Assembly (NCBI RefSeq): GCF_014695585.1
Contig: NZ_JACJON010000063.1
Coordinates: 1-64,000, forward strand
Length of the DNA stretch: 64,000 nt
Reading direction: 5' to 3'
Origin: Microcoleus sp. FACHB-831
GTDB taxonomy: Bacteria; Cyanobacteriota; Cyanobacteriia; Cyanobacteriales; FACHB-T130
Position 1 is the first letter of the stretch; each line of letters starts with the position of its first letter. Positions 4,599 through 38,030 of this stretch are shown here, piece after piece. The translations under genes were made by a program, and so were the position numbers. Under the pieces are notes generated by a model. That model saw nothing but the letters and a program-made list of their open reading frames with translations, was not told the DNA's origin and did no database searches.

Positions 4599-5702
4599 GC
4601 TGAGCCAACCTTTCAAGCGTTTGGCAATTTGGGGGCGGCGCAGTTTTCGCATCGCTTTGCTTTGAATTTGACGCACCCGTTCGCGAGACAGATTGAACAA
4701 ACAGCCCACTTCTTCTAGCGTGTAGGGTTCGCTGCTAGTCAAACCATAACGCAAAGCAATAACATCTTTCTCCCTCTCAGTCAGTACGTCGCCCAAAACC
4801 TCCCAAATTTCTTGGCGCATCATGGATTCGCTCATCTGATCTTCGGGAGACTGGTTATCGCTATCTTCGAGCAAGTCTACCAGTTCCGTCTCAGCGCCCT
4901 TACCAACTCTATGGTTTAGAGAGAGCGATCGCCTCCTCAACTGCAACAACTGGCGCAGATGTTCTGGCGAAATTTCCAGCGCCACTGCCATCTCCTCCTC
5001 GCTGGGATTGCGATGCAGCTTTTGCTTCAATTCCCGCTGGGCTTTTTTAAGTTTATTTAGCTTCTCGACAATGTGAATCGGCAATCTAATTGTCCGCGCA
5101 TCATTTGCTATAGTCCGCGTGATTGCCTGACGAATCCACCAATAGGCATAAGTAGAAAACTTGTAACCTTTATCTGGATCGAACTTTTCCGTAGCTCGAT
5201 TTAATCCCAGTGCGCCTTCCTGAATCAAATCTAGGAATTGAACGCCCCTATTCAAATACCTTTTAGCAATTGAAACTACCAGGCGCAAATTCGAGCGAAT
5301 CATCTTGCGTTTAGCCACGCGACCGCGATATAGGCGATGTTCCAGCTGTTTTTCTGTCATTCCAGCTGCGGCAGCGACTTCTGCTTTGGAAGCCCCGTGT
5401 CCCAACTCTTTACGCAAGCGTTTTTCCAGCGCTTCAAATTCCACTAAAAATTGCACGCGATGGGCTAACTCTACCTCTTCTTCTGGTTTGAGTAGCGGAT
5501 AGCGTGCCATTTCCTTAAAAAATGCTCCTACCGTATCATCGGAGACACTTTTGCGATATCCAGATGGGCGTGCTTCTGCCAATTCTTCCGCCAAATCTCC
5601 TAGTTCTGCTTCAACAGCACTAAGGTCGGTTTCTTCGAGATCGGGAGTAATATCGACTGTAGATTCGAGCGGTTCGATTCCGGTTAACGAGGCAATATTC
5701 AT
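4596..5702 (-). CDS. RNA polymerase sigma-70 factor (RpoD/SigA family, group 1/2)
   Basis: Primary-type sigma factor of 368 residues. Region 1.2 is at about 57-90 (DTVGAFFKEMARYPLLKPEE). Region 2 is at about 134-200, with the core-binding and -10 recognition segment FSTYAYWWIRQAITR. Region 3 follows, and region 4 is at about 308-360 with the helix-turn-helix LSRERVRQIQ. The length and the lack of a long N-terminal region 1.1 fit a cyanobacterial group 2 factor (a SigC-like assignment is possible but not secure). Group 2 factors usually serve stress or nutrient programmes. A strong inverted repeat lies about 75 bp upstream of the ATG. Confidence 0.95.
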   Translation of the reverse strand: MNIASLTGIEPLESTVDITPDLEETDLSAVEAELGDLAEELAEARPSGYRKSVSDDTVGAFFKEMARYPLLKPEEEVELAHRVQFLVEFEALEKRLRKELGHGASKAEVAAAAGMTEKQLEHRLYRGRVAKRKMIRSNLRLVVSIAKRYLNRGVQFLDLIQEGALGLNRATEKFDPDKGYKFSTYAYWWIRQAITRTIANDARTIRLPIHIVEKLNKLKKAQRELKQKLHRNPSEEEMAVALEISPEHLRQLLQLRRRSLSLNHRVGKGAETELVDLLEDSDNQSPEDQMSESMMRQEIWEVLGDVLTEREKDVIALRYGLTSSEPYTLEEVGCLFNLSRERVRQIQSKAMRKLRRPQIAKRLKGWLS

Positions 5703-27889: not shown

Positions 27890-28408
27890 ATGGCTCCAAT
27901 GAACCGTCTGTCTATTTTTGTAGACGGCAACAATATGTTCTACGCTCAACAAAAAAATGGCTGGTTTTTCGATCCCAGAAGAGTGTTGGAATACTTCAAA
28001 AAAGAACAAGACGATACGATGCTGATCAATGCCTTCTGGTACACCGGATTAAAAGATCCGCAAGATCAACGGGGCTTCCGAGACGCACTAATTAGCTTAG
28101 GTTACACCGTCCGCACTAAAATTCTTAAAGAATACTACGACGATAGTTCTGGTCGATACTCGCAAAAAGCAAATTTAGACATAGAAATAGTCGTAGATAT
28201 GTTTAATACAGTAGATCAGTACGACAGGGTAATTTTATTTAGCGGCGATGGCGATTTTGAACGAGCTATTGAATTATTACGGTCTAAAAGCACTCATATT
28301 ACAGTTGTATCTACCGAAGGAATGATTGCCAGAGAATTGCGAAATGCTACAGACCGCTATATAGACCTGAATGATATTCGGGAATATATTGAGAAAGTTG
28401 AATATTAA
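27890..28408 (+). CDS. NYN-domain (LabA/DUF88) putative RNase
   Basis: PIN-like nuclease-fold protein of 172 residues. Conserved acidic positions are visible in LSIFVDGNNMFY near the N-terminus, in NLDIEIVVDMF and in FSGDGDFERAIELL, consistent with a metal-dependent RNase active site. LabA, a relative in Synechococcus, acts in the clock output pathway; a similar role here is only possible. No neighbour suggests a partner. Confidence 0.9.
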   Translation: MAPMNRLSIFVDGNNMFYAQQKNGWFFDPRRVLEYFKKEQDDTMLINAFWYTGLKDPQDQRGFRDALISLGYTVRTKILKEYYDDSSGRYSQKANLDIEIVVDMFNTVDQYDRVILFSGDGDFERAIELLRSKSTHITVVSTEGMIARELRNATDRYIDLNDIREYIEKVEY

Positions 28409-28427
28409 GTAATTGGCAAAATTTAGT

Positions 28428-28460
28428 AGTTAAGAGTTAAGAATTAAGAGTTAGGAGTTT
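28428..28460. repeat. TTAAGAG-type heptamer repeat
   Basis: About four imperfect heptamers (AGTTAAG/AGTTAAG/AATTAAG/AGTTAGG) lie between the NYN gene and leuA. Related GAGTTAAGAG words also occur near 18700 and 62160, so this is a dispersed cyanobacterial short repeat. Confidence 0.7.
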
Positions 28461-28572
28461 AAAAAAAATACCATAAATAATCAATATCAGTAAGAACTCA
28501 TCATTCAAAACTCATAACTATTAAAAAAACATTGCAGATTAACCAAATTTGGAGGAAATGTTCTTTAGCACT

Positions 28573-30186
28573 ATGGAAGTTCAACCTAACGGGGATCGGA
28601 TTCTTATTTTTGATACCACGCTACGGGATGGCGAACAATGCCCCGGAGCTACGCTGAATGTAGACGAAAAGCTAATAATTGCCAGACAGCTAGCTCGTCT
28701 GGGAGTGGATATAATTGAGGCGGGTTTTGCTTATGCTAGCCCAGGAGATTTTGAGGCAGTTGAGAAGATTGCTAAGACAGTAGGGACAGAAGATGGCCCG
28801 GTTATCTGTAGTTTAGCAAGAGCAATTAAAGCAGATATTGAAGCAGCCGCAAAAGCCTTGAAACCTGCGGCAAAGGGTAGAATACACACCTTTATTTCTA
28901 CTTCAGATATTCATCTGGAGTATCAGTTGAGGAAGTCAAGGGCAGAGGTATTAGCGATCGCAGAAGAAATGGTTGCATACGCCAAATCCTTCATGGACGA
29001 TGTAGAATTCTCGCCCATGGATGCAGCCCGCTCCGATCCAGAATATTTATATCAAGTACTAGAGCGCACTATTGCTGCTGGCGCCAAAACCATCAACATT
29101 CCCGATACCGTCGGTTACATGACTCCCAGCGAGTTTGGTGACTTAATTCGGGGAATTAAAGAAAATGTCCCTAACATCAACCAAGCGGTTATTTCCGTTC
29201 ACGGACACAACGACTTAGGCTTGGCTGTCGCTAACTTTCTAGAAGCCGTAAAGAACGGCGCACGCCAACTAGAATGCACCATCAACGGCATTGGCGAACG
29301 CGCTGGAAACGCATCTTTAGAAGAATTGGTGATGGCGCTTCACGTGCGGCGATCGTATTACAACCCATTTTTGGGACGCCCCGCCGAGTCAGAAGAACCG
29401 CTAACTAATATCGACACGCGACAAATTTACAAGACTTCTCGCCTAGTTTCCAACTTAACAGGAATGCTAGTGCAGCCGAATAAAGCAATTGTAGGCGCTA
29501 ATGCCTTTGCTCACGAATCTGGCATTCACCAAGATGGCGTGCTAAAGAACAAGCTAACCTACGAAATCATGGATGCCCAATCCATCGGATTGACAGACAA
29601 TCAGATTGTACTGGGCAAACATTCAGGACGCCATGCTTTCGGCGCTCGCTTGAAAGAATTGGGATTTGAACTATCAGAGGATGATATCAATAAAGCATTC
29701 GTCAAGTTCAAAGACATGGCGGATAAGAAGAAGGAAATCACCGATTGGGATTTGGAAGCCATCGTCAATGATGAAATTCAACAGGCTCCCGAACTATTTC
29801 GTGTTGAATTAGTGCAGGTTTCTTGTGGTAGCAACTCTCGTCCTACAGCAACGGTGACGCTGCGGACGCCAACTGGTGAAGAACTGACAGATGCAGCTAT
29901 TGGCACTGGCCCTGTGGATGCAGTATACAAGGCCATCAACCGCGTTGTTAACGTACCAAACCAACTGATTGAGTTTTCCGTTCAGTCAGTGACTGCGGGG
30001 ATTGATGCAATCGGGGAAGTGACGATTCGCCTGAAGCACGACGAACGGATATTTTCCGGTCATGCTGCCAACACGGATATTATCGTCGCTTCTGCTCAAG
30101 CTTACGTCAACGCCCTGAATAGGCTGTATGCGGCTACACAGAACTCAGGGGAAAATCCTGCGACTGCTGTGGGTAGTACCGTGTAA
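28573..30186 (+). CDS. leuA: 2-isopropylmalate synthase
   Basis: Enzyme of 537 residues that condenses acetyl-CoA and 2-ketoisovalerate as the first committed step of leucine synthesis. The catalytic TIM barrel has [27 protein letters not shown] and [10 protein letters not shown]. The metal-binding His pair is in HESGIHQDG. The C-terminal regulatory domain (about 390-510) binds leucine for feedback inhibition. ATGs at 28558 and 28573 and a TTG at 28549 are all possible. A GGAGG at 28551 is too close to 28558 and rather far from 28573, so the exact start is uncertain. It is convergent with the PIWI-RE operon. Confidence 0.96.
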
Positions 30187-30251
30187 CCCCACACCGGGCA
30201 TCGAAGACCTAAATCCCTGCATACCCTAATGACTTGAAGTATCTAATACTA

Positions 30252-33032
30252 TTAAGTAATTAGGGATTCGTTGGATTCGCTGGCTTCCACAGTATCCTTG
30301 GCACTAACAGCATATTCTTTGGCTTTGGTTGCAAAGGGAAAAGGAAATGGCAGGGAAACATCATCGGCAAAATAAGGCCAACGACTCCTGAGACTGTGGA
30401 CGAAGCAAGCTAGACGAGCGGGTGCGATTTCTGGATTTGGAGCGATCGCTATCTCTAATAATCTCGCCTTCCCAGCTTGTCGGTTGCCATTATCAAGCCG
30501 AGACTGCGATTTGCGTAATAAGTCCTGTTCAGTAGTTAAAGGCTTTCTAACGCTGAGGTAGAGCGTATTTTCTCCATCATCACACACATCTTGCCAGCAG
30601 AATAGACCGCTGGTTTTGCTGCCTGGAGAATCCTTAACAATAGCTACGGGTACTTCACCGCTGTCTGCAATTCGTAGCCGCACAATCCACAAGCGATTTA
30701 TTTCTCCCGGTTTTGTAATTTGCAGCTGCTTCAAAGCATCGGATAGATTTGGGTTTTGTAGCCAAGGTAACTTCAATCGGGCATTTTGTGCTTCAGCCAT
30801 GAATAGTATTTTGGGAGATTTATTATCTGCAATTGGAGTATTCAGGCAATCGCGCAAACAGTCAGCAACGAATTTATTAATAAGCCGTTGTTCGCGTTCT
30901 TTATCCCAAGGCTGTTGTTCATCGCCGATGTCTTCAGTGGTTTCATTGAAATAGGAATCTGGGTTCCATTTTTCACTCAGAAGGTGTTTCAGTCCAACTG
31001 GATAAGATACCCATTTTGTTAATAAAGAAGGGGTTGTCATTTCTACTTTTCCCGTTACTGGGTTAACTCGTACCATCAGCACGGCAGTATTGGGATTGTT
31101 GCTGGCAGTTGTTTTTTTAGTGCGCCGCAGGACATAGAAACACGTCAGCCACACATGAGGCTCGATACCATCAATTTCCAACTTGATTAACGGAGGAGCA
31201 GGTAGAATTCCGCACTGTCGTAGCAAGTCTGATACTGCTCGTTTAACCCGTTCTCGGCCAGAGTTAGTAATTTTTTCCTTGCCTTCCTTAGTAGTAAAAG
31301 TTATGCGGTGGATGTGCTGATTGACATAGCCTTTTTGCATCGGTGCAATTCGCCATGCCAGCTTCGCATCGTTTTCTGGTATGAAGGGTTTAGGCTTAAT
31401 TTCGATTATTGTACCGCTGAGTCCTTCAGGTGCAGGTAGGAATGAAACAATCTTTTTAATGCGTTCTTCTAGCAAATGATCGCGTCGTTTTTGGCGGTTA
31501 TTTCCGGGTACTGAGGTATCATCAACATTAAAGTTTTGCGTGAGGTCTTGAACGTGCTGAGTCTTGATACACAGCGAACCATGAGAGCCTTTATAGATAT
31601 TTTCTTCTCCTGTTGGTGATAAAGAAAGTAGCTGACAAATTTCAGCAATGAGAGCATCTCGACATTCTTTGGTTTCCCAGAGAATAAGTATGGTGCATAG
31701 GGTATTTTCAGTTTCACGAAATACGGCGGGTGCTGCGATTTTCGGTCGCAGCATTGTGGTAGATAACTCGTCGGAAACCTTCACTTTCTTAGGCTTTTTT
31801 TCCTTGGTGGCTTGGTTTTGGTCGTCAACAATATTGGCAATTTTGGGCTTTTTGGGTTTATCAAGCGGCCAGAAAGGCTTAACAGAACCTGACACTTTTA
31901 CCGCCTCACCCACTCGCTGAACGGGTAGACGTTCTTGAATAGCTTTATCGAGGCTGTATAAATCCAGCAGACTGACACCAGGTTTGCTGGGTATTTCACC
32001 GGTATGTCGAGTGTCATAGGAGATCGCAGCTTCTATCCCACTGGAGATAGTACCGTTCCCCATCCAGTTGTAAGTTGGGTTTTTAACTAACTCAATGGGG
32101 TCAGGAATTTTGCAGTCGTTTATAAGAAGTAATTCGTTGATGGCTTGAGGCCATTTCAGTTCCTTTTCTTCCTTTCCTTGACGCTTCATAATGAGTGGAG
32201 TAAAGCAGAAAGGTTGACGCTGACCATCCAACCAACGACGGCGATCGCCAATATAAGCGGTGGCTCCTTTGTACGGTACGTTATTCTTTTTCTCCCTAAT
32301 CAGAGGTTCCGCGAACCATCGCCGAATTGAAAGTTCGTGGTAGATGATGGGTTGAGAGCGCCAGGGGACTGTTTGTAATTTAAAACTGATGACAAACGAG
32401 ATGTAGGCGCGGTCTTCTCGTACTTCTCCCTGGGAGTTTAGTAGCACAACTGGATCGGGAGGCCATGACATTAATTCGGCTCCTTTGAGACGAACAACCC
32501 GATAGAATGTCAGTTTGTATTTATCATCTGCACCAAAGGCAACTGTCGGTTTTTCGAGAAACTCTTGTGCAAGGTAATCTGGAATTGCCTGGTAGAGGAT
32601 ATTTTTTTCTGCTTGGTTTCGGGGATGAAGTAAGGAATACGTTTGTGGATCTTCCCAGTGCCAATCGTCATCGTTAAGATTGTCGAGAACAGAATTAACT
32701 TCATCTTCTCCCAGACACCAGCTAAATTCAGATCTTAGCCAATCTTTGATTAAATCTCCCAGGTTAGAAAGGTCTGCGGTTTCTGTTGCGAACAACCAAG
32801 GTACACCGGGTTTTTGCCAGCCATTACGCACAGTTTGGATGATTTTGGGAAAGCTTGCAGCTATTAAAAGATCGAGGGAGTAGACTGGCACGCCTCGATA
32901 ACCTTTTTTGGCACGCTTCTGAGCAAGGGAGTTGGCAATTTGCCGCCAGGAATTAGGAACATAGAGTCCAAAAATATCGCGTTGCACATCTTTTGTGAGT
33001 TCCCAGGCGCCGGGGAGAATGATTTTAGTCAT
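30252..33032 (-). CDS. PIWI-RE family protein (prokaryotic Argonaute-like)
   Basis: Protein of 926 residues that I identify as a PIWI-RE protein from its C-terminal signature and operon. The last part reads HSLRSRWPYFADD (879-891), LPFPFP, then KEYA (Glu906), the conserved Arg/Glu-bearing end typical of this family. Upstream lie a probable MID-like region, an RNase H-fold PIWI region (about 560-900) and an N-terminal module (about 1-390) linked by a Lys/Pro-rich hinge (about 395-430). I could not find a convincing DEDX catalytic tetrad by eye, so slicer activity is not claimed. The gene overlaps the helicase gene by 8 bp (ATGACTAA). Role by family: guided binding of foreign nucleic acid together with the helicase and nuclease. 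Confidence 0.85.
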   Translation of the reverse strand: MTKIILPGAWELTKDVQRDIFGLYVPNSWRQIANSLAQKRAKKGYRGVPVYSLDLLIAASFPKIIQTVRNGWQKPGVPWLFATETADLSNLGDLIKDWLRSEFSWCLGEDEVNSVLDNLNDDDWHWEDPQTYSLLHPRNQAEKNILYQAIPDYLAQEFLEKPTVAFGADDKYKLTFYRVVRLKGAELMSWPPDPVVLLNSQGEVREDRAYISFVISFKLQTVPWRSQPIIYHELSIRRWFAEPLIREKKNNVPYKGATAYIGDRRRWLDGQRQPFCFTPLIMKRQGKEEKELKWPQAINELLLINDCKIPDPIELVKNPTYNWMGNGTISSGIEAAISYDTRHTGEIPSKPGVSLLDLYSLDKAIQERLPVQRVGEAVKVSGSVKPFWPLDKPKKPKIANIVDDQNQATKEKKPKKVKVSDELSTTMLRPKIAAPAVFRETENTLCTILILWETKECRDALIAEICQLLSLSPTGEENIYKGSHGSLCIKTQHVQDLTQNFNVDDTSVPGNNRQKRRDHLLEERIKKIVSFLPAPEGLSGTIIEIKPKPFIPENDAKLAWRIAPMQKGYVNQHIHRITFTTKEGKEKITNSGRERVKRAVSDLLRQCGILPAPPLIKLEIDGIEPHVWLTCFYVLRRTKKTTASNNPNTAVLMVRVNPVTGKVEMTTPSLLTKWVSYPVGLKHLLSEKWNPDSYFNETTEDIGDEQQPWDKEREQRLINKFVADCLRDCLNTPIADNKSPKILFMAEAQNARLKLPWLQNPNLSDALKQLQITKPGEINRLWIVRLRIADSGEVPVAIVKDSPGSKTSGLFCWQDVCDDGENTLYLSVRKPLTTEQDLLRKSQSRLDNGNRQAGKARLLEIAIAPNPEIAPARLACFVHSLRSRWPYFADDVSLPFPFPFATKAKEYAVSAKDTVEASESNESLIT

Positions 33033-36000
33033 AGTTTAAATCCCTTCCTTTCATTTGTTGGAGTGCGTTGAAGAAATCTTCGTAGAGCGATCGCGCTAGC
33101 GTTATTTCAAAAGGTCGCTTATCATCACGCTCAATATAAGGTTCAAGCACCTTGATGATTCCGACCAAAAGTGAGGTGGTTTTACTGTCGATATCGCCCT
33201 TAGCTGAGTTTGTTTTACTGTCGATATCGCCCTTAGCTTTAGCTGAGTTGGGTGCAAATTTCACATCCATGAAATAAACTAGAGCAGGCACATTACCGCG
33301 CACCAACCGCCCGATAATTTGCCAAATACTCACTGATTGGGTTGAGCAGAGTACGCGGCGTTCTTTTTCTGTTAACTGCTGGAATGACATCGCCGTACAG
33401 TTCAATTCGAGCATTTCGTTAACTGCATCTCGATAGAAGATGTCTGCAACTTTGGTAAGTGTTAAGGTTTCTCCGCTGCATATAGCTTCCTCGTATAGAG
33501 TGGTATTTGCTTCATTGTCCAGCGCCCAGTTGTTAAGTTGTCGGACAATTGATTGCCAGTCATCGGGTACCGGCATAGGTCGATTCAAAAATATCGCCCC
33601 ACCAAAAGCAGCTTTGTCTTGATTGTTCAGGATGTTGTGACCTCGCTCTAGTGCCATCAAAGGGGCGACTACAATCTGGGTGGGGGTGTTTTTTACATCG
33701 CGAATTTTGCCCCTACGAATACCACGTAGATGAGCGGGAGCATTATCGCGGCGGAGAGTGGCAATTCCCTCATCGTCAAAAATTTCAAGGCGGTAGAGGT
33801 AGAGGGATTTTAAGATAGACGTAACCCAGTCAGCTTCATCGTAGCTGCCAGTTATTATTAGGATGCGATCGCGAGCGCCCCACCATTCATCATTCTCCTC
33901 TCCTCGCTGTTTTAAATCCTGGAATATCTCATCAAGAAAGCTGGGTACATTTCCAGAAGATTGACACATAGCCTTCACCAAATTTTCAGCAGCCAGCTTC
34001 CTTCTTGCAGGCGGAAGTCCTGATAGAGCAATATAATTTCCGTTGCTCTGCATCGGTCTAAAGAAAAACTCACTCTCGCCGATACCTCCATTGCCACACG
34101 AGCCATTATTAGTTGCGGTTTTTAGCAATATAGTGGGTTGAATCCTGATGTTATAAGCAGGAGAACCAGGAGCATAGCTAGTGCCTGATACCAGCACAGT
34201 ATGCGGCCCATTCCAATCATCAACTGCAAAGAGTGTAGGGAAGTTTAGAAGTAAGGCGCGACCTACACCGACATAGCGAAAATATTCCAGCTTACCTCCT
34301 TTTTGATGGTTGGAGCTGCGGCGATCGCGAATATACCGGAATCCTAAAATATTACCGACTGGCGACTCTGGCACAACTGGCAGATAATCAAACGGTGGGC
34401 GATGCAGCAAGTCTTGGCTCAAGTCGTGCAAGTTGACTACCTGACTAATAGGGCGAAGATTATCAACTAAAAAACCCAAGCGATTATCTAGCACTGTAGT
34501 TAAAATCGCCAAGTGTAAGTTTCGGAGCAGTTCTTCATATTTAGCTTCATCTGCTAGGCAAATATGGTTTGCTTCAAGCCATCTTTTACACCATGAGTCA
34601 ACTTCAGCTAATGCAAGGCGATCGCTATCTGTCGTCAATAATGTTAATGCCAGGTCTGATAGTTCTTCCCCACGACTGCGAGTTAGAGGATGTTGCAAAA
34701 ATCCGTCTAGCGCCTGCATCAAATCCTTTCGATGGCGACGTAACTGTGAATTATTAGTAATTTCTTGGGGCAGTTGTTCGGTAAGTTCGCGGATAATTCG
34801 AGCAAATAGGGAACGAGCCGTGAAGGGGTTTCGTCCCAACCATTCAACGAGTTTCGGGTGGTTGAGGAGCAAGTGGTAGATGCGGTTAGTGGCATTTTGC
34901 GTGTGGTACTGTGCGCCAGTCCAAGCAACAAAGCGATCGCCTGCCATGTTGCTGCGATCTGAGTTGTAAATATTGGCAGCGTTGTTGAGCCCGAGTTTAT
35001 TTAAAAACGAGTTTTGTGAAATATCAACTAAGATTTCATTGGGTGCAAAGTCTTCATCAAGCTGCACCTGTACCCTATCGGCTTCGTCAACAAATAGAAA
35101 CTCACACTCTCGATAAACTGCTTCAGCAAAAGTAAGGTCTTCTTCAAAAATCTGACGAGGTACGCGGGTATGAATAAAACTTGCTGTTGTCAGAACCCAG
35201 ACTTTTGCCTTGCCAATATCTTTTTCTAGCTGATGACGCGGACATTTATAATACAAAGGACAGGTATATTTGTCTTTTTGCTCTTCCAAATCATCATCTC
35301 TATCGGGGTCGCCATTTGCTGATACTGCAACTTTTTGGTAAAGATTGTGGCAGGGTTCTTGTCCAAATTCCCACTTATCTTCTGATTGCACCAAAGCTAA
35401 TAATGGGCAGACTGGGCTAAACCAACGCAGTGCTGGATGCATTCCTCCTTGAGTTATTTCCTCGCCCTCATTGGCAAGAATCGATTCATAGACTTTTTCA
35501 AGTTGTTCGGCGCGATCGCTCCCCAATACTGGTGCCGCTGGAATTCCCAGTTTGTGCCAAACCAACGAGGCGATCCGCACAGCCGCCACCACATCATTTA
35601 CTATCAACGCACACCGATATCCTTGCTTGGCGAAGTGGTAAATCAGAATTTCCAGCAAAGTAGACTTGCCCACATTTAAAAGACCGACAATGTGGATAAT
35701 TCCCTCTAGTGTTAGGCTGCTACCACGACAAAAATCATCAGAATAAGCATCGTATAGTTGTACTTCAATGCCTAACAGACGGCTATGATAATTTTCTGGC
35801 TTCTGCCCAGAGCCAGCTAGTTGGCGATCCATTTCCTGGGCTGCTAGCAGCAATTTATCAAAAGTGACAGTATGCTGTGGATTATCGGCTGCGCGGGTAC
35901 GATGAAAAGATACCAAGGAATTGGGTGCAATGTTAGCAACTGCTTGGGGAATGTGGATGGGAATCTCAACTGGTGAGTGACCCTTTTGGGAAATCTTGGC

Positions 36001-36519
36001 ATACCAACGTCCCTCAGTTGCTAGTTTGACTTCTCGTTTTTTGTGCTGTGGGGTTGTTAATAGAGTTTGGCGATATAGCTGCAAGCGAGTCGGGTAGGTA
36101 CTTGATGGAATTAACTGGGGAACTTGGTCAACTTCTGTCAGGCTGTAGATTCTTAAAATCTCAGGTAAGTTGATATATTCAGAAAGCGATCGCAACCATT
36201 GTCTTCCCTTGCGACGAATTAGATAGAAACGGCATTTTTGTACAAGTTGCCAGTTATCCTCACATTGAATTTGTTCAACAGGAAATCGATATCCTTTAAG
36301 CAGCGCTTCGACAGAAGTAGCAGGTTCTTCTGGTGCAACTTGCTGAAGTAAGGTAAGCCCCAATTCCACATCTGCAATCAGTTGGGCAAGACGCATAATT
36401 TCGCGAAATTGTGCCTTAGCATCTGCGTTAGGCAAACCACATACCACATACTCTTTTAGGTCATCTGAGTTACGCAGTGCTTTGCACAGTTGTTTGCACC
36501 AGCTAGTAGTATCACGCAT
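33025..36519 (-). CDS. DinG/XPD-like helicase of the PIWI-RE operon
   Basis: Superfamily 2 helicase of 1164 residues. Walker A is GLLNVGKSTLLE (about 277-288), the DEAD box is FVDEADRVQ (about 477) and motif VI is WQIIGRLVRG (about 1070). Between motifs I and II there are cysteines in CPLLALVQSE, CHNLY and CPLYYKCPRH, matching the iron-sulfur site of DinG/XPD helicases. The long regions before motif I (about 1-260) and after the DEAD box are peculiar to the PIWI-RE-associated type. It overlaps both neighbours by 8 bp, so the three proteins are made together. It should unwind DNA or DNA-RNA hybrids for the PIWI-RE protein. An 11-residue tandem duplication lies near residue 1100. Confidence 0.87.
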   Translation of the reverse strand: MRDTTSWCKQLCKALRNSDDLKEYVVCGLPNADAKAQFREIMRLAQLIADVELGLTLLQQVAPEEPATSVEALLKGYRFPVEQIQCEDNWQLVQKCRFYLIRRKGRQWLRSLSEYINLPEILRIYSLTEVDQVPQLIPSSTYPTRLQLYRQTLLTTPQHKKREVKLATEGRWYAKISQKGHSPVEIPIHIPQAVANIAPNSLVSFHRTRAADNPQHTVTFDKLLLAAQEMDRQLAGSGQKPENYHSRLLGIEVQLYDAYSDDFCRGSSLTLEGIIHIVGLLNVGKSTLLEILIYHFAKQGYRCALIVNDVVAAVRIASLVWHKLGIPAAPVLGSDRAEQLEKVYESILANEGEEITQGGMHPALRWFSPVCPLLALVQSEDKWEFGQEPCHNLYQKVAVSANGDPDRDDDLEEQKDKYTCPLYYKCPRHQLEKDIGKAKVWVLTTASFIHTRVPRQIFEEDLTFAEAVYRECEFLFVDEADRVQVQLDEDFAPNEILVDISQNSFLNKLGLNNAANIYNSDRSNMAGDRFVAWTGAQYHTQNATNRIYHLLLNHPKLVEWLGRNPFTARSLFARIIRELTEQLPQEITNNSQLRRHRKDLMQALDGFLQHPLTRSRGEELSDLALTLLTTDSDRLALAEVDSWCKRWLEANHICLADEAKYEELLRNLHLAILTTVLDNRLGFLVDNLRPISQVVNLHDLSQDLLHRPPFDYLPVVPESPVGNILGFRYIRDRRSSNHQKGGKLEYFRYVGVGRALLLNFPTLFAVDDWNGPHTVLVSGTSYAPGSPAYNIRIQPTILLKTATNNGSCGNGGIGESEFFFRPMQSNGNYIALSGLPPARRKLAAENLVKAMCQSSGNVPSFLDEIFQDLKQRGEENDEWWGARDRILIITGSYDEADWVTSILKSLYLYRLEIFDDEGIATLRRDNAPAHLRGIRRGKIRDVKNTPTQIVVAPLMALERGHNILNNQDKAAFGGAIFLNRPMPVPDDWQSIVRQLNNWALDNEANTTLYEEAICSGETLTLTKVADIFYRDAVNEMLELNCTAMSFQQLTEKERRVLCSTQSVSIWQIIGRLVRGNVPALVYFMDVKFAPNSAKAKGDIDSKTNSAKGDIDSKTTSLLVGIIKVLEPYIERDDKRPFEITLARSLYEDFFNALQQMKGRDLNYD
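33179..33238. repeat. In-frame 33-bp tandem duplication in the helicase gene
   Basis: A 27-bp stretch at 33179-33205 recurs exactly at 33212-33238 (33-bp period). It encodes two copies of KGDIDSKT followed by NSA or TSL. The copies are nearly identical, so the duplication is recent; it keeps frame and sits in a charged, probably exposed loop after motif VI. Confidence 0.9.
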
Positions 36520-37831
36520 GATTTTTATTCTCCCTAATTTCTTTAGCCTTGGCTATGATTTCGCTAAATAGCATCAAACGCACTCCGCCCAATTCAGGTT
36601 CAAACTGTTCGCGCACCACCTTGATTCGCAAAGACTCTTCTCGCTCATGTGGGAAAACCACAAAGGTTTCTGTTGCATCAGGACGATGTTTCACCTTCTG
36701 CAAACGTTCCTCATCCAGGCATGACCAATCTTTAACATCAATCGCCCAGCGGACTTTGCGGCTTAACTCTACGAGTAAGTCAAATTCATCAACATTCGGC
36801 CATAGAGTGACACGAACACCCAGTTTTGTGAGTTCTTCTGCCAACTTTATTTCCCAAATTCCCGGCAGTGTTCCGTACAAATGCACGCCTGGAGTAACAG
36901 CTTTCCAATCCTCAGCTTCCTCTTTGGTAATAGATCGCAGCGGCGCGAGTTTGAGTTTTGCACACAGCCGTTCGCACCATGCGTTTCGGCAGCTATAAGT
37001 ATCATCGGCGCGTCGTCGCTGGACATACTTGCAGCGGGGGCATAAATGATATGTATTTTCAGAAGCCAACTTAACCATATCGACATAGATATCCAGCCCC
37101 GACAACAATTCGCGCAGTGGCCTGAGTTGGGGTGAAGATAGCAGTTTCCGATATTCTTTGTATTCAAGAGTGGGCTTAGTAATAATCAGCTTGCGAAATT
37201 CTCGATAGGCATCTTCCAGCTGATGTCCCCTGCAATATTCCAGTACATCTTTAAGTGCGGCTTCCTGTACCTGCGCCGCCACATCTTTGCCTGAAACTTG
37301 CCAAAGTGTCGCAAAATCGGAAACTAGCCCGTCTTCTATGAGGGTGACATCCGGTGAAATGTTTTTGATTTCCTGGGTTGATTTCCAGTTAGTAATTGGT
37401 TGTTTTGCCCAGTCGAAAAATTCGGGAAGGTTCGCTGGGGTATTTTCTTCTTCTCCCCTCAGCAGGGAAGTTAAATACATCCTGGACATCCCGATGCGGA
37501 GTGCTTCTGGTGGGTGTGCGCGTTTTACTGGTTCTTGTTTTTCCCACTCCACTACGCCAGTCGCCAGATACCGAAGAGTTTCTTGTACAGGTATCTGCAT
37601 TGGGGGTTCCTCCGGTTCCGATCTCAGGAGGCGGAGACTTCGTGCAGCGTGATCTTCCCACTCCACATCAATGCCTCGCATCGTCTGCAACCACCGCTGA
37701 AGGGTTGCTTTCTGGCTTGGTTGCATTCCCAGTTCTTGACACAACTCTTCCAGGGTTGGCCCCTCTTTATGGATGCGAAACCACTCTTGCAGAGCATCCA
37801 GGATTTTCTGTCGGTGCTTGGTAATCTTCAC
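36512..37831 (-). CDS. REase-fold nuclease with winged helix and zinc ribbon (PIWI-RE operon)
   Basis: First gene of the operon, 439 residues, with GTG start after a strong AAGGAGGG ribosome binding site (37838-37845). Residues 1-65 form a LexA-like winged helix (HRQKILDALQEWF, GPTLEELCQELG). A zinc ribbon follows at about 262-292 (CPRC ... CRNAWCERLC). The C-terminal domain (about 315-435) has the restriction-endonuclease core: EFDLLVEL (about 348-355) then AIDVKDW (about 363-369), i.e. the D-(x)n-(D/E)-x-K metal site. This matches the REase component known from PIWI-RE operons. The winged helix could repress the operon or recognise target DNA. It overlaps the helicase gene by 8 bp (ATGCGTGA). 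Confidence 0.85.
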   Translation of the reverse strand: MKITKHRQKILDALQEWFRIHKEGPTLEELCQELGMQPSQKATLQRWLQTMRGIDVEWEDHAARSLRLLRSEPEEPPMQIPVQETLRYLATGVVEWEKQEPVKRAHPPEALRIGMSRMYLTSLLRGEEENTPANLPEFFDWAKQPITNWKSTQEIKNISPDVTLIEDGLVSDFATLWQVSGKDVAAQVQEAALKDVLEYCRGHQLEDAYREFRKLIITKPTLEYKEYRKLLSSPQLRPLRELLSGLDIYVDMVKLASENTYHLCPRCKYVQRRRADDTYSCRNAWCERLCAKLKLAPLRSITKEEAEDWKAVTPGVHLYGTLPGIWEIKLAEELTKLGVRVTLWPNVDEFDLLVELSRKVRWAIDVKDWSCLDEERLQKVKHRPDATETFVVFPHEREESLRIKVVREQFEPELGGVRLMLFSEIIAKAKEIRENKNHA

Positions 37832-38030
37832 TGGCTTCCCTCCTTTTTTCTAGAAGTTTTCCCAAGTGTGACACCCGCACAAGTCAGCGTCAAGAAAAAG
37901 TTTCTATGTTTCTATTAAGTTTCAATAGTTTCCATTTTTTAATCAGGGAAACAAAGCGGACAAAACCACTCTCAAACGTGCTGTATGATTACGAATAATT
38001 CGACACAGGTGGGATTGAGGAGTCGGTAAA

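What the first reader, a model, noticed from the sequence alone, without database searches (positions are those of the whole stretch)
30252..37831. Three-gene PIWI-RE (Argonaute-like) system with 8-bp gene overlaps
Three minus-strand genes encode an REase-fold protein with a winged helix and zinc ribbon, a DinG/XPD-like iron-sulfur helicase, and a PIWI-RE protein ending in HSLRSRWPYF...KEYA. The set matches the PIWI-RE operon type defined by Burroughs, Iyer and Aravind. Both junctions overlap by exactly 8 bp (ATGCGTGA and ATGACTAA), so production of the three proteins is tightly coupled. This is a predicted guide-directed defence system and far less studied than classical Argonautes.
Basis: partly seen in the sequence, partly recalled or inferred. 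Interest (0 to 1): 0.85.

Follow-up and report, generated by a model that had tools for sequence, protein, structure and literature searches.

The report
PIWI-RE defence operon with promoter repeats
A cyanobacterium carries a predicted Argonaute-like defence operon of a known kind, whose guide-binding protein looks unable to cut DNA while a partner nuclease looks intact, and in front of it lies a repeated DNA motif that is probably the operon's own switch.

Summary
The three genes, their coordinates and both 8-bp overlaps are confirmed. Profiles identify them as the pPIWI-RE triad of Burroughs et al. 2013: a new member of a known kind. It interrupts a leuA-methyltransferase pair that is 98-283 bp apart in 6 of 11 relatives checked; the same lineage occurs on four cyanobacterial plasmids.

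Two refinements and one addition. (1) At the presumed catalytic Asp positions the PIWI domain has Asn657 and Glu747, while helicase and PD-(D/E)xK nuclease motifs are intact: PIWI reads as guide-binding sensor, REase as cutter. (2) Only the first 8-bp overlap is conserved. (3) A tandem GAAAC array about 100 bp before the REase start scores above every shuffle in 15 of 16 copies whose REase has a LexA-like HTH (the 16th has altered spacing) and in none of 9 without it. Its pattern occurs once in the 6.4-Mb genome; its consensus finds only the four PIWI-RE operons at E < 0.01 among 72,556 plasmid records. I read it as the operator of a self-regulated nuclease. Binding, guides and defence are untested.

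The parts
30252..33032 (-). PIWI-RE gene, 926 aa: X domain (res 9-415), MID (486-614), RNase H/PIWI (630-909)
31053..31091 (-). presumed first strand of the RNase H fold (res 648-660): no acidic residue; Asn657 where three divergent copies have Asp
   Evidence: strand and column assigned by sequence, not structure
30792..30794 (-). Glu747 in FMAEAQNAR at the presumed second catalytic Asp position
33025..36519 (-). DinG/XPD-type helicase gene, 1164 aa, with N-terminal Z domain (res 45-193)
35242..35409 (-). four-cysteine (iron-sulfur type) region C371, C390, C420, C426
   Evidence: invariant in 25 of 25 aligned helicases
36512..37831 (-). REase gene, 439 aa: LexA-like wHTH (1-67), Y domain (86-222), zinc ribbon CxxC..CxxxxC (264-286), REase fold (324-432) with E327, D348, D351, D365-x-K367
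37631..37831 (-). LexA-like winged helix of the REase protein, the most conserved of the segments compared (mean pairwise identity 0.749; HTH core 0.793)
36512..36519 (-). 8-bp overlap ATGCGTGA, REase stop / DinG start; conserved
33025..33032 (-). 8-bp overlap ATGACTAA, DinG stop / PIWI start; length not conserved
37900..37933 (-). tandem array GGAAACTATTGAAACTTAATAGAAACATAGAAAC; GAAAC units at offsets 0, 9, 20, 28 counted from the first GAAAC; candidate operator
37888..37893 (-). TTGACG, -35-like box 6 nt downstream of the array; TTGAC in 12 of 16 copies of the lineage; the matching -10 (37865-37870, CACACT) is poor
   Evidence: read by eye; not picked by the promoter scan
37838..37844 (-). 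AGGAGGG, presumed ribosome-binding site of the REase gene
   Evidence: read by eye
30187..38030 (.). insertion between leuA (ends 30186) and a methyltransferase gene (starts 38031); the two genes are close together in six relatives

Best explanation
It is a horizontally acquired pPIWI-RE triad. Step 1 (inferred): the PIWI-RE protein binds a short guide through its MID domain and pairs it with foreign DNA or an R-loop; it does not cut, because both presumed RNase H catalytic Asp are replaced. Step 2 (inferred): the DinG-type helicase is recruited and opens or moves along the target. Step 3 (inferred): the REase protein, with intact PD-(D/E)xK residues and zinc ribbon, cuts the DNA. Step 4 (DNA element shown, binding inferred): the REase's own LexA-like winged helix binds the tandem GAAAC array before its promoter, so the nuclease controls its own operon. 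Overlapping genes couple synthesis of the proteins. The likely targets are plasmids or other transcribed invading DNA.
For: Family. Catalytic columns (30 rows): Asp at both 657 and 747 in three divergent copies (L055, L067, L075); in the 16 rows of the window's lineage 657 is Asn in 16 of 16, and 747 is Glu in 12, Ser in 3, Asp in 1. MID positions E544 and R561 invariant in 27 of 27 (L062, L063 and L065, partial or poorly aligned, dropped from 30). Helicase: GK of Walker A, DExD, R1071/R1074 and four Cys in 25 of 25, Q1067 in 24 of 25. REase E327, D348, D351, D365, K367 in 25 of 25. Array: 34-nt consensus matched at 26-33 of 34 in 15 of 16 LexA-HTH copies and 23 in the 16th, 13-18 in 9 of 9 other copies; 3,200 single-base shuffles mean 16.6, maximum 24. 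Information 1.5-1.6 bits per column in the array, 0.1-0.3 in the nine 10-nt blocks upstream of -10, 0.3-0.75 downstream from +40. The three-unit pattern occurs once in the own genome, at this operon, control 0. Written after seeing 12 copies, of which 9 satisfy it at that place, it then held in 3 of 4 plasmid copies, the fourth with one mismatch. Of 120 genomes (own included), the fixed-spacing pattern is in 8 of 13 with a copy of this lineage (7 at the usual place, G097 346 bp before its triad) and in 4 of 107 without. Consensus search of 72,556 plasmid records: the only hits under E 0.01 are the four PIWI-RE operons. wHTH is the best conserved segment of the REase. Mobility: near-adjacent flanking genes in relatives, plasmid copies, patchy spread.
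Against: No expression, guide, binding or interference data. The LexA assignment is below curated cut-offs (TIGR00498 1.3e-4; PF01726 in 8 of 16 members at E < 0.1, best 4.8e-4; LexA DNA-binding domain in the PDB E 0.51, behind an acyl carrier protein at 0.017). Array and HTH share one lineage, so their co-occurrence is not independent; L048, the relative that lost the HTH, lost its 5' end altogether. Direct repeats are not the palindromes usual for LexA (general knowledge). The array was sought only 60-170 nt before the start and the profile is anchored on it, which favours it; L051 (23 of 34) lies within the shuffle range; 3 of 12 first copies (L045, L050, L051) miss the strict pattern at the usual place. 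TTGAC is lacking in 4 of 16 (L044-L046, L050) and the promoter scan did not find this promoter. Four exact pattern matches lie in genomes without a copy, and L121 carries a similar triple repeat beside a phage integrase. The catalytic columns are assigned by sequence; the copies with Asp in both lack the family's Arg and Glu (Ser and Phe there). The PIWI-RE tested in the literature is active, and its deletion was reported to affect ciprofloxacin survival and filamentation (PMC10991935).
Confidence: 0.55

Rival explanations
1. Housekeeping role in DNA replication or repair: the triad helps replication under stress, as suggested by the ciprofloxacin sensitivity of the P. stutzeri PIWI-RE deletion mutant.
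For: Huang et al. 2022, section 11 read; DinG-type helicases act in replication and repair (same paper; R-loops and replication in Burroughs 2013).
Against: Patchy distribution (this lineage in 13 of 120 genomes; any match to the protein in 4 of 388 class genomes; own included in both), plasmid carriage, decayed copies in L047, L052, L053 and L033, and closely spaced flanking genes without the triad in relatives do not look like housekeeping.
Confidence: 0.15
2. Element-versus-element weapon: the triad is chiefly cargo of mobile elements that eliminates competing plasmids, and the chromosomal copy here is a captured one.
For: Same lineage on Aulosira, Nostoc and two Calothrix plasmids, 1 conjugative, 2 mobilizable, 1 non-mobilizable; divergent triads on two other plasmids beside restriction-modification genes. 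The Argonaute-like ApsAB system eliminates plasmids (passages read).
Against: The 12 copies from genome assemblies (window included) lie among mostly housekeeping genes by eye; no target is known.
Confidence: 0.2
3. The array is bound by a host transcription factor, not by the REase.
For: Phased direct repeats just upstream of a -35 box are typical of activators such as response regulators (general knowledge); the tie to the HTH rests on one lineage.
Against: The pattern occurs nowhere else in the own genome, whereas a host regulator would be expected to have other sites; the array is kept on plasmids of other genera.
Confidence: 0.3
4. The residues are misassigned and the PIWI domain is still catalytic.
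For: No good structure and no biochemically active reference sequence was at hand; models are poor.
Against: No Asp or Glu lies anywhere in residues 648-660 of the window protein, whatever the register; divergent copies do have Asp in both presumed columns; Burroughs 2013 states that only a subset keeps the catalytic residues.
Confidence: 0.1

Closest known systems
pPIWI-RE three-gene system (Burroughs, Iyer, Aravind 2013; PADLOC PprPIWI/PprDinG/PprRE)
   Same: Gene order, domains X-MID-RNaseH, Z-DinG, HTH-Y-ZnR-REase, tight spacing; the LexA-type HTH fusion was listed by the authors, who proposed autoregulation or target specificity
   Different: No difference in kind. Added here: a conserved DNA array as candidate operator, the insertion site, and plasmid copies of the lineage
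PsPIWI-RE of Pseudomonas stutzeri (Huang et al. 2022)
   Same: Same protein family, with DinG and a nuclease gene described next to it
   Different: PsPIWI-RE cuts (D525, D610 needed); the window protein has Asn and Glu at the presumed positions
ApsAB / DdmDE antiplasmid systems
   Same: Works like: Argonaute-like protein plus helicase and nuclease (ApsA: PD-(D/E)XK; passages; DdmDE from those passages and recall)
   Different: Two proteins, helicase and nuclease in one; other Argonaute-like families. Not claimed as members and not tested.

Membership tests
pPIWI-RE three-gene system | PIWI-RE protein with X, MID and RNase H domains | tested here: met
   PF13111, PF18157, PF13032 above cut-off
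pPIWI-RE three-gene system | conserved Arg and Glu of the PIWI-RE sheet extension | tested here: met
   R785 and E860, present in 16 of 16 rows of the lineage; the columns were chosen by eye from the spacing given for PsPIWI-RE (R639, E718; 79 apart, here 75), not by an alignment with it
pPIWI-RE three-gene system | DinG-type helicase with Cys-rich region and Z domain | tested here: met
   PF18155, PprDinG; four Cys and helicase motifs
pPIWI-RE three-gene system | REase with Y domain and zinc ribbon | tested here: met
   PF18154, PF18156; Cys positions and D..D-x-K
pPIWI-RE three-gene system | order REase, DinG, PIWI with overlapping or close ends | tested here: met
Catalytically active PIWI-RE (PsPIWI-RE type) | two catalytic Asp | tested here: not met
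   Asn657 and Glu747; columns assigned by sequence only
LexA-type wHTH | match to the LexA DNA-binding domain | tested here: inconclusive
   TIGR00498 E 1.3e-4 over residues 2-82 but below its cut-off; PF01726 best 4.8e-4 among 16 members, window 0.0072, below cut-off
Guide-directed DNA interference | guide loading and target destruction | not testable with these tools
   needs experiment

The most novel reading that the evidence does not exclude
The effector nuclease of this Argonaute-like system is also its own transcription switch: the HTH-REase sits on a dedicated GAAAC array at its promoter, which both represses the operon and holds the nuclease away from the rest of the chromosome until the guide-loaded, non-cutting PIWI-RE and the helicase call it to foreign DNA.
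Probability: 0.3. Interest if true: 0.7.

Novelty: new member of a known kind. Interest (0 to 1): 0.48.

Why it matters
PIWI-RE triads have been predicted since 2013 to be RNA-dependent restriction systems, and in the listings I saw there was one biochemical study, of an active PIWI protein (one search listed 30 of 202 papers). This intact copy makes two questions testable: whether an inactive PIWI-RE directs a separate nuclease, and whether that nuclease regulates itself through a defined DNA site. The array is short, specific and easy to assay, and it can help to find further operons of this lineage from DNA alone.

Tried and rejected
Structure: AlphaFold2 of the MID-PIWI half and of the REase with four sequences each gave mean pLDDT 39.9 and 39.5; Foldseek of the first against PDB gave no hit at E 0.001 or below (short-Argonaute chains of SPARTA and SPARDA appear at 3.1e-3 to 1.5e-2 with low TM-scores among unrelated GTPases, not usable). 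By sequence, the PDB gave nothing better than E 0.12 for the PIWI-RE protein and 0.035 (an SRP GTPase) for the helicase.

The NYN nuclease gene at 27890-28408 was considered as a fourth member and rejected: it is in 12 of 12 genomes searched, and in the 11 relatives its best match lies 54-1,661 bp from the leuA match, with or without a triad in the genome.

Phage carriage: no match in 50,697 phage records and none in IMG/VR by protein patterns of the PIWI-RE protein and the helicase (these find only close relatives). Guide RNA gene: no Rfam match in the window. Insertion ends: no terminal or target-site repeats recognised around the insert. Defence island: of 116 flanking ORFs in 12 loci ten were picked by eye for a PADLOC scan; 6 of 10 matched something, most clearly in L051 (PDC-S02), L046 (HKD/SNF2 helicase types) and L044 (HNH); the other 106 were not scanned. 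The surroundings look mostly like different housekeeping genes, so no general defence island. An attempt to find an active reference copy on plasmids found only the query itself. The promoter scan did not report the promoter that I propose.

Literature: PIWI-RE, pPIWI-RE, PIWI-RE with Argonaute and prokaryotic, PIWI-RE with DinG, related sets, open-licence papers only. Read: Burroughs 2013 abstract, section 6 and passages; Huang 2022 abstract, section 11 and passages; ApsAB paper, passages; an EVE/DCD-domain paper, passages, not relevant. In these two PIWI-RE papers I saw no upstream repeat or operator; the words operator and direct repeat (Burroughs) or repeat (Huang) do not occur in their main texts. 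One search (operator terms) returned only papers without PIWI-RE in its ten rows and decides nothing. Additional files were not read.
Full report
OBSERVATION. The overlaps ATGCGTGA and ATGACTAA are exact. Pfam and PADLOC profiles name all three proteins as parts of the pPIWI-RE triad with E-values from about 1e-15 to 1e-145. The PIWI-RE protein has one match in the own genome.

CONSERVATION OF THE OVERLAPS. The lineage of this copy (REase with the same N-terminal HTH) was studied in 12 loci from genome assemblies, the window included, and 4 plasmids. Taking the ATG that gives it as the start, the REase/DinG overlap is 8 bp in 14 of 16, with ATGCGTRA in 11 of the 12 assembly copies. L050 and L071 differ. 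The DinG/PIWI junction varies: 8 bp in the window, L043 and L050; 11 or 14 bp in most others; a 4-nt gap in L042 and gaps over 100 nt in L031 and L070. Only the first overlap can be called a conserved feature.

SETTING AND MOBILITY. The operon lies between leuA and a methyltransferase gene. LeuA was found in 11 of 11 relatives searched, the methyltransferase in 10 of 12 genomes, the own included. In six relatives (G001-G005, G007) the two matches are 98-283 bp apart; in G006 918 bp; in G008 and G009 they are on different contigs; G024 and G088 have no methyltransferase match at the cut-off used (1e-60). The intergenic stretches were read. The triad is therefore most simply an insertion of about 7.8 kb; no integrase gene or repeat at its ends was recognised, and its G+C is like that of the window. 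Relatives carry the triad among other genes. Four cyanobacterial plasmids carry the same lineage with 52-59% identity over 99% of the PIWI-RE protein: Aulosira laxa NIES-50 (conjugative), Nostoc sp. HK-01 and Calothrix sp. NIES-4105 (mobilizable), Calothrix sp. PCC 7716 (non-mobilizable). The spread is patchy, own genome included in each count: 18 of 120 genomes match the PIWI-RE protein, 13 of them strongly; 4 of 388 class genomes match it; the family PF13032 is in 7 of 291 class genomes, which shows that the protein search misses divergent members. Decayed copies are seen in L047, L052, L053 and L033.

ACTIVE SITES. In the PIWI domain the presumed first strand reads AVLMVRVNP with no acidic residue in 648-660. 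On an alignment of 30 rows three divergent copies (L055, L067, L075) have Asp in column 657 and in column 747, the presumed catalytic pair. In the 16 rows of the window's lineage column 657 is Asn in 16, and column 747 is Glu in 12, Ser in 3 and Asp in 1. The window has Asn657 and Glu747. The family's Arg and Glu (R785, E860 here) are present in 16 of 16 of the lineage and absent from the copies with both Asp. These columns were chosen by eye with the help of the residue numbers given for PsPIWI-RE. The MID domain keeps E544 and R561 in 27 of 27 sequences (three partial or poorly aligned rows dropped from 30). The helicase keeps GK of Walker A, DExD, R1071, R1074 and four cysteines in 25 of 25. 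The REase keeps E327, D348, D351, D365 and K367 in 25 of 25. So guide-binding and unwinding parts and one nuclease look intact, while the PIWI nuclease does not.

THE ARRAY. Upstream of the REase gene the lineage shares a block close to AAAATGGAAACATTGGAAACATTATGGAAACATTGAAAAATTTTCTTGAC, with GAAAC units at offsets 0, 9, 20 and 28 and, in 12 of 16, a -35-like TTGAC directly after it. Sought 60-170 nt before the start, the best match to a 34-nt consensus begins 98-110 nt before it in all 16. The match is 26-33 of 34 in 15 copies (window 26) and 23 in L051, whose spacing is altered; it is 13-18 in the best of 300 nt in nine copies without this HTH (L048, L054-L058, L073-L075); 3,200 single-base shuffles of the upstream regions give a mean of 16.6 and a maximum of 24. 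Column information is 1.5-1.6 bits in the array, 0.1-0.3 in the 10-nt blocks from -100 to -11, and 0.3-0.75 from +40 on (the profile is anchored on the array, which favours it). The three-unit pattern with small spacing tolerance occurs once in the 6.4-Mb genome. It was written after seeing the first 12 copies, of which 9 satisfy it at the usual place; of four plasmid copies fetched later three satisfy it and the fourth has one mismatch. Among 120 genomes the fixed-spacing pattern occurs in 12: seven at the usual place before a triad, G097 346 bp before its triad plus one elsewhere, and four genomes without a copy of this lineage. A blastn search of a 53-nt consensus in 72,556 plasmid records gives 18 records: the four PIWI-RE operons at E 5e-11 to 3e-7 and fourteen at E 0.3 or more. 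In IMG/VR one contig matches a strict pattern; it has similar repeats beside a tyrosine recombinase gene and no PIWI-RE among the ORFs of the 8 kb held.

WHO READS THE ARRAY. The REase N-terminus resembles the LexA DNA-binding domain weakly (TIGR00498 E 1.3e-4; PF01726 in 8 of 16 members, best 4.8e-4; both below curated cut-offs). It is the best conserved segment of the REase across 16 copies: mean pairwise identity 0.749 for residues 1-67 and 0.793 for 24-60, against 0.664 for Y and 0.678 for the REase fold. Burroughs et al. proposed that such HTH domains autoregulate or give target specificity. The array is a DNA counterpart to this proposal. Co-occurrence within one lineage is not proof of binding.

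MECHANISM. Best reading: guide-loaded, non-cutting PIWI-RE recognises foreign DNA; the DinG-type helicase remodels it; the REase cuts; the REase controls its own operon at the array. The steps on guide, recruitment and cutting are inferred from family knowledge and the Burroughs model, with the difference that cutting is assigned to the REase alone. Systems that work alike but are not claimed as relatives are ApsAB and DdmDE (passages of one paper read).

VERDICT. The finding is real and correctly named. It is a new member of a known, still little studied kind. The conserved array was not seen in the parts of the two PIWI-RE papers that I read or word-searched; wider absence from print was not established.

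Noticed in passing
window 27890-30186: The NYN-domain (LabA-like) gene and leuA are neighbours in the window and lie 54-1,661 bp apart in all 11 relatives searched; a conserved pair unrelated to the triad.
   Followed up: partly
L055, L067, L075 (PIWI-RE proteins): Divergent PIWI-RE copies with Asp at both presumed catalytic columns but without the Arg and Glu that named the family: a possible active subgroup.
   Followed up: no
L040 and L055 (G088); L050 and L056 (G097): Two genomes each carry two different PIWI-RE triads, one with the LexA-like HTH and one divergent.
   Followed up: no
L050, 346 bp before the REase start: A further GAAAC array with exact spacing lies upstream while the one at the usual place is degenerate.
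   Followed up: no
L121 5051-5078 and about 5240-5265: An IMG/VR contig has GGGAAACAT repeats next to a tyrosine recombinase gene, perhaps its arm sites; similar in letters to the array, probably unrelated.
   Followed up: partly
L073, L075: Divergent PIWI-RE triads on Nostoc and Calothrix plasmids sit next to restriction-modification genes (annotated HaeIII family, Eco29kI family).
   Followed up: no
L074 9606-11359: On a Streptomyces plasmid the triad is followed closely by two more genes, one annotated restriction endonuclease.
   Followed up: no
L052, L053 (G020): One genome holds two separate decayed remnants of the triad.
   Followed up: no
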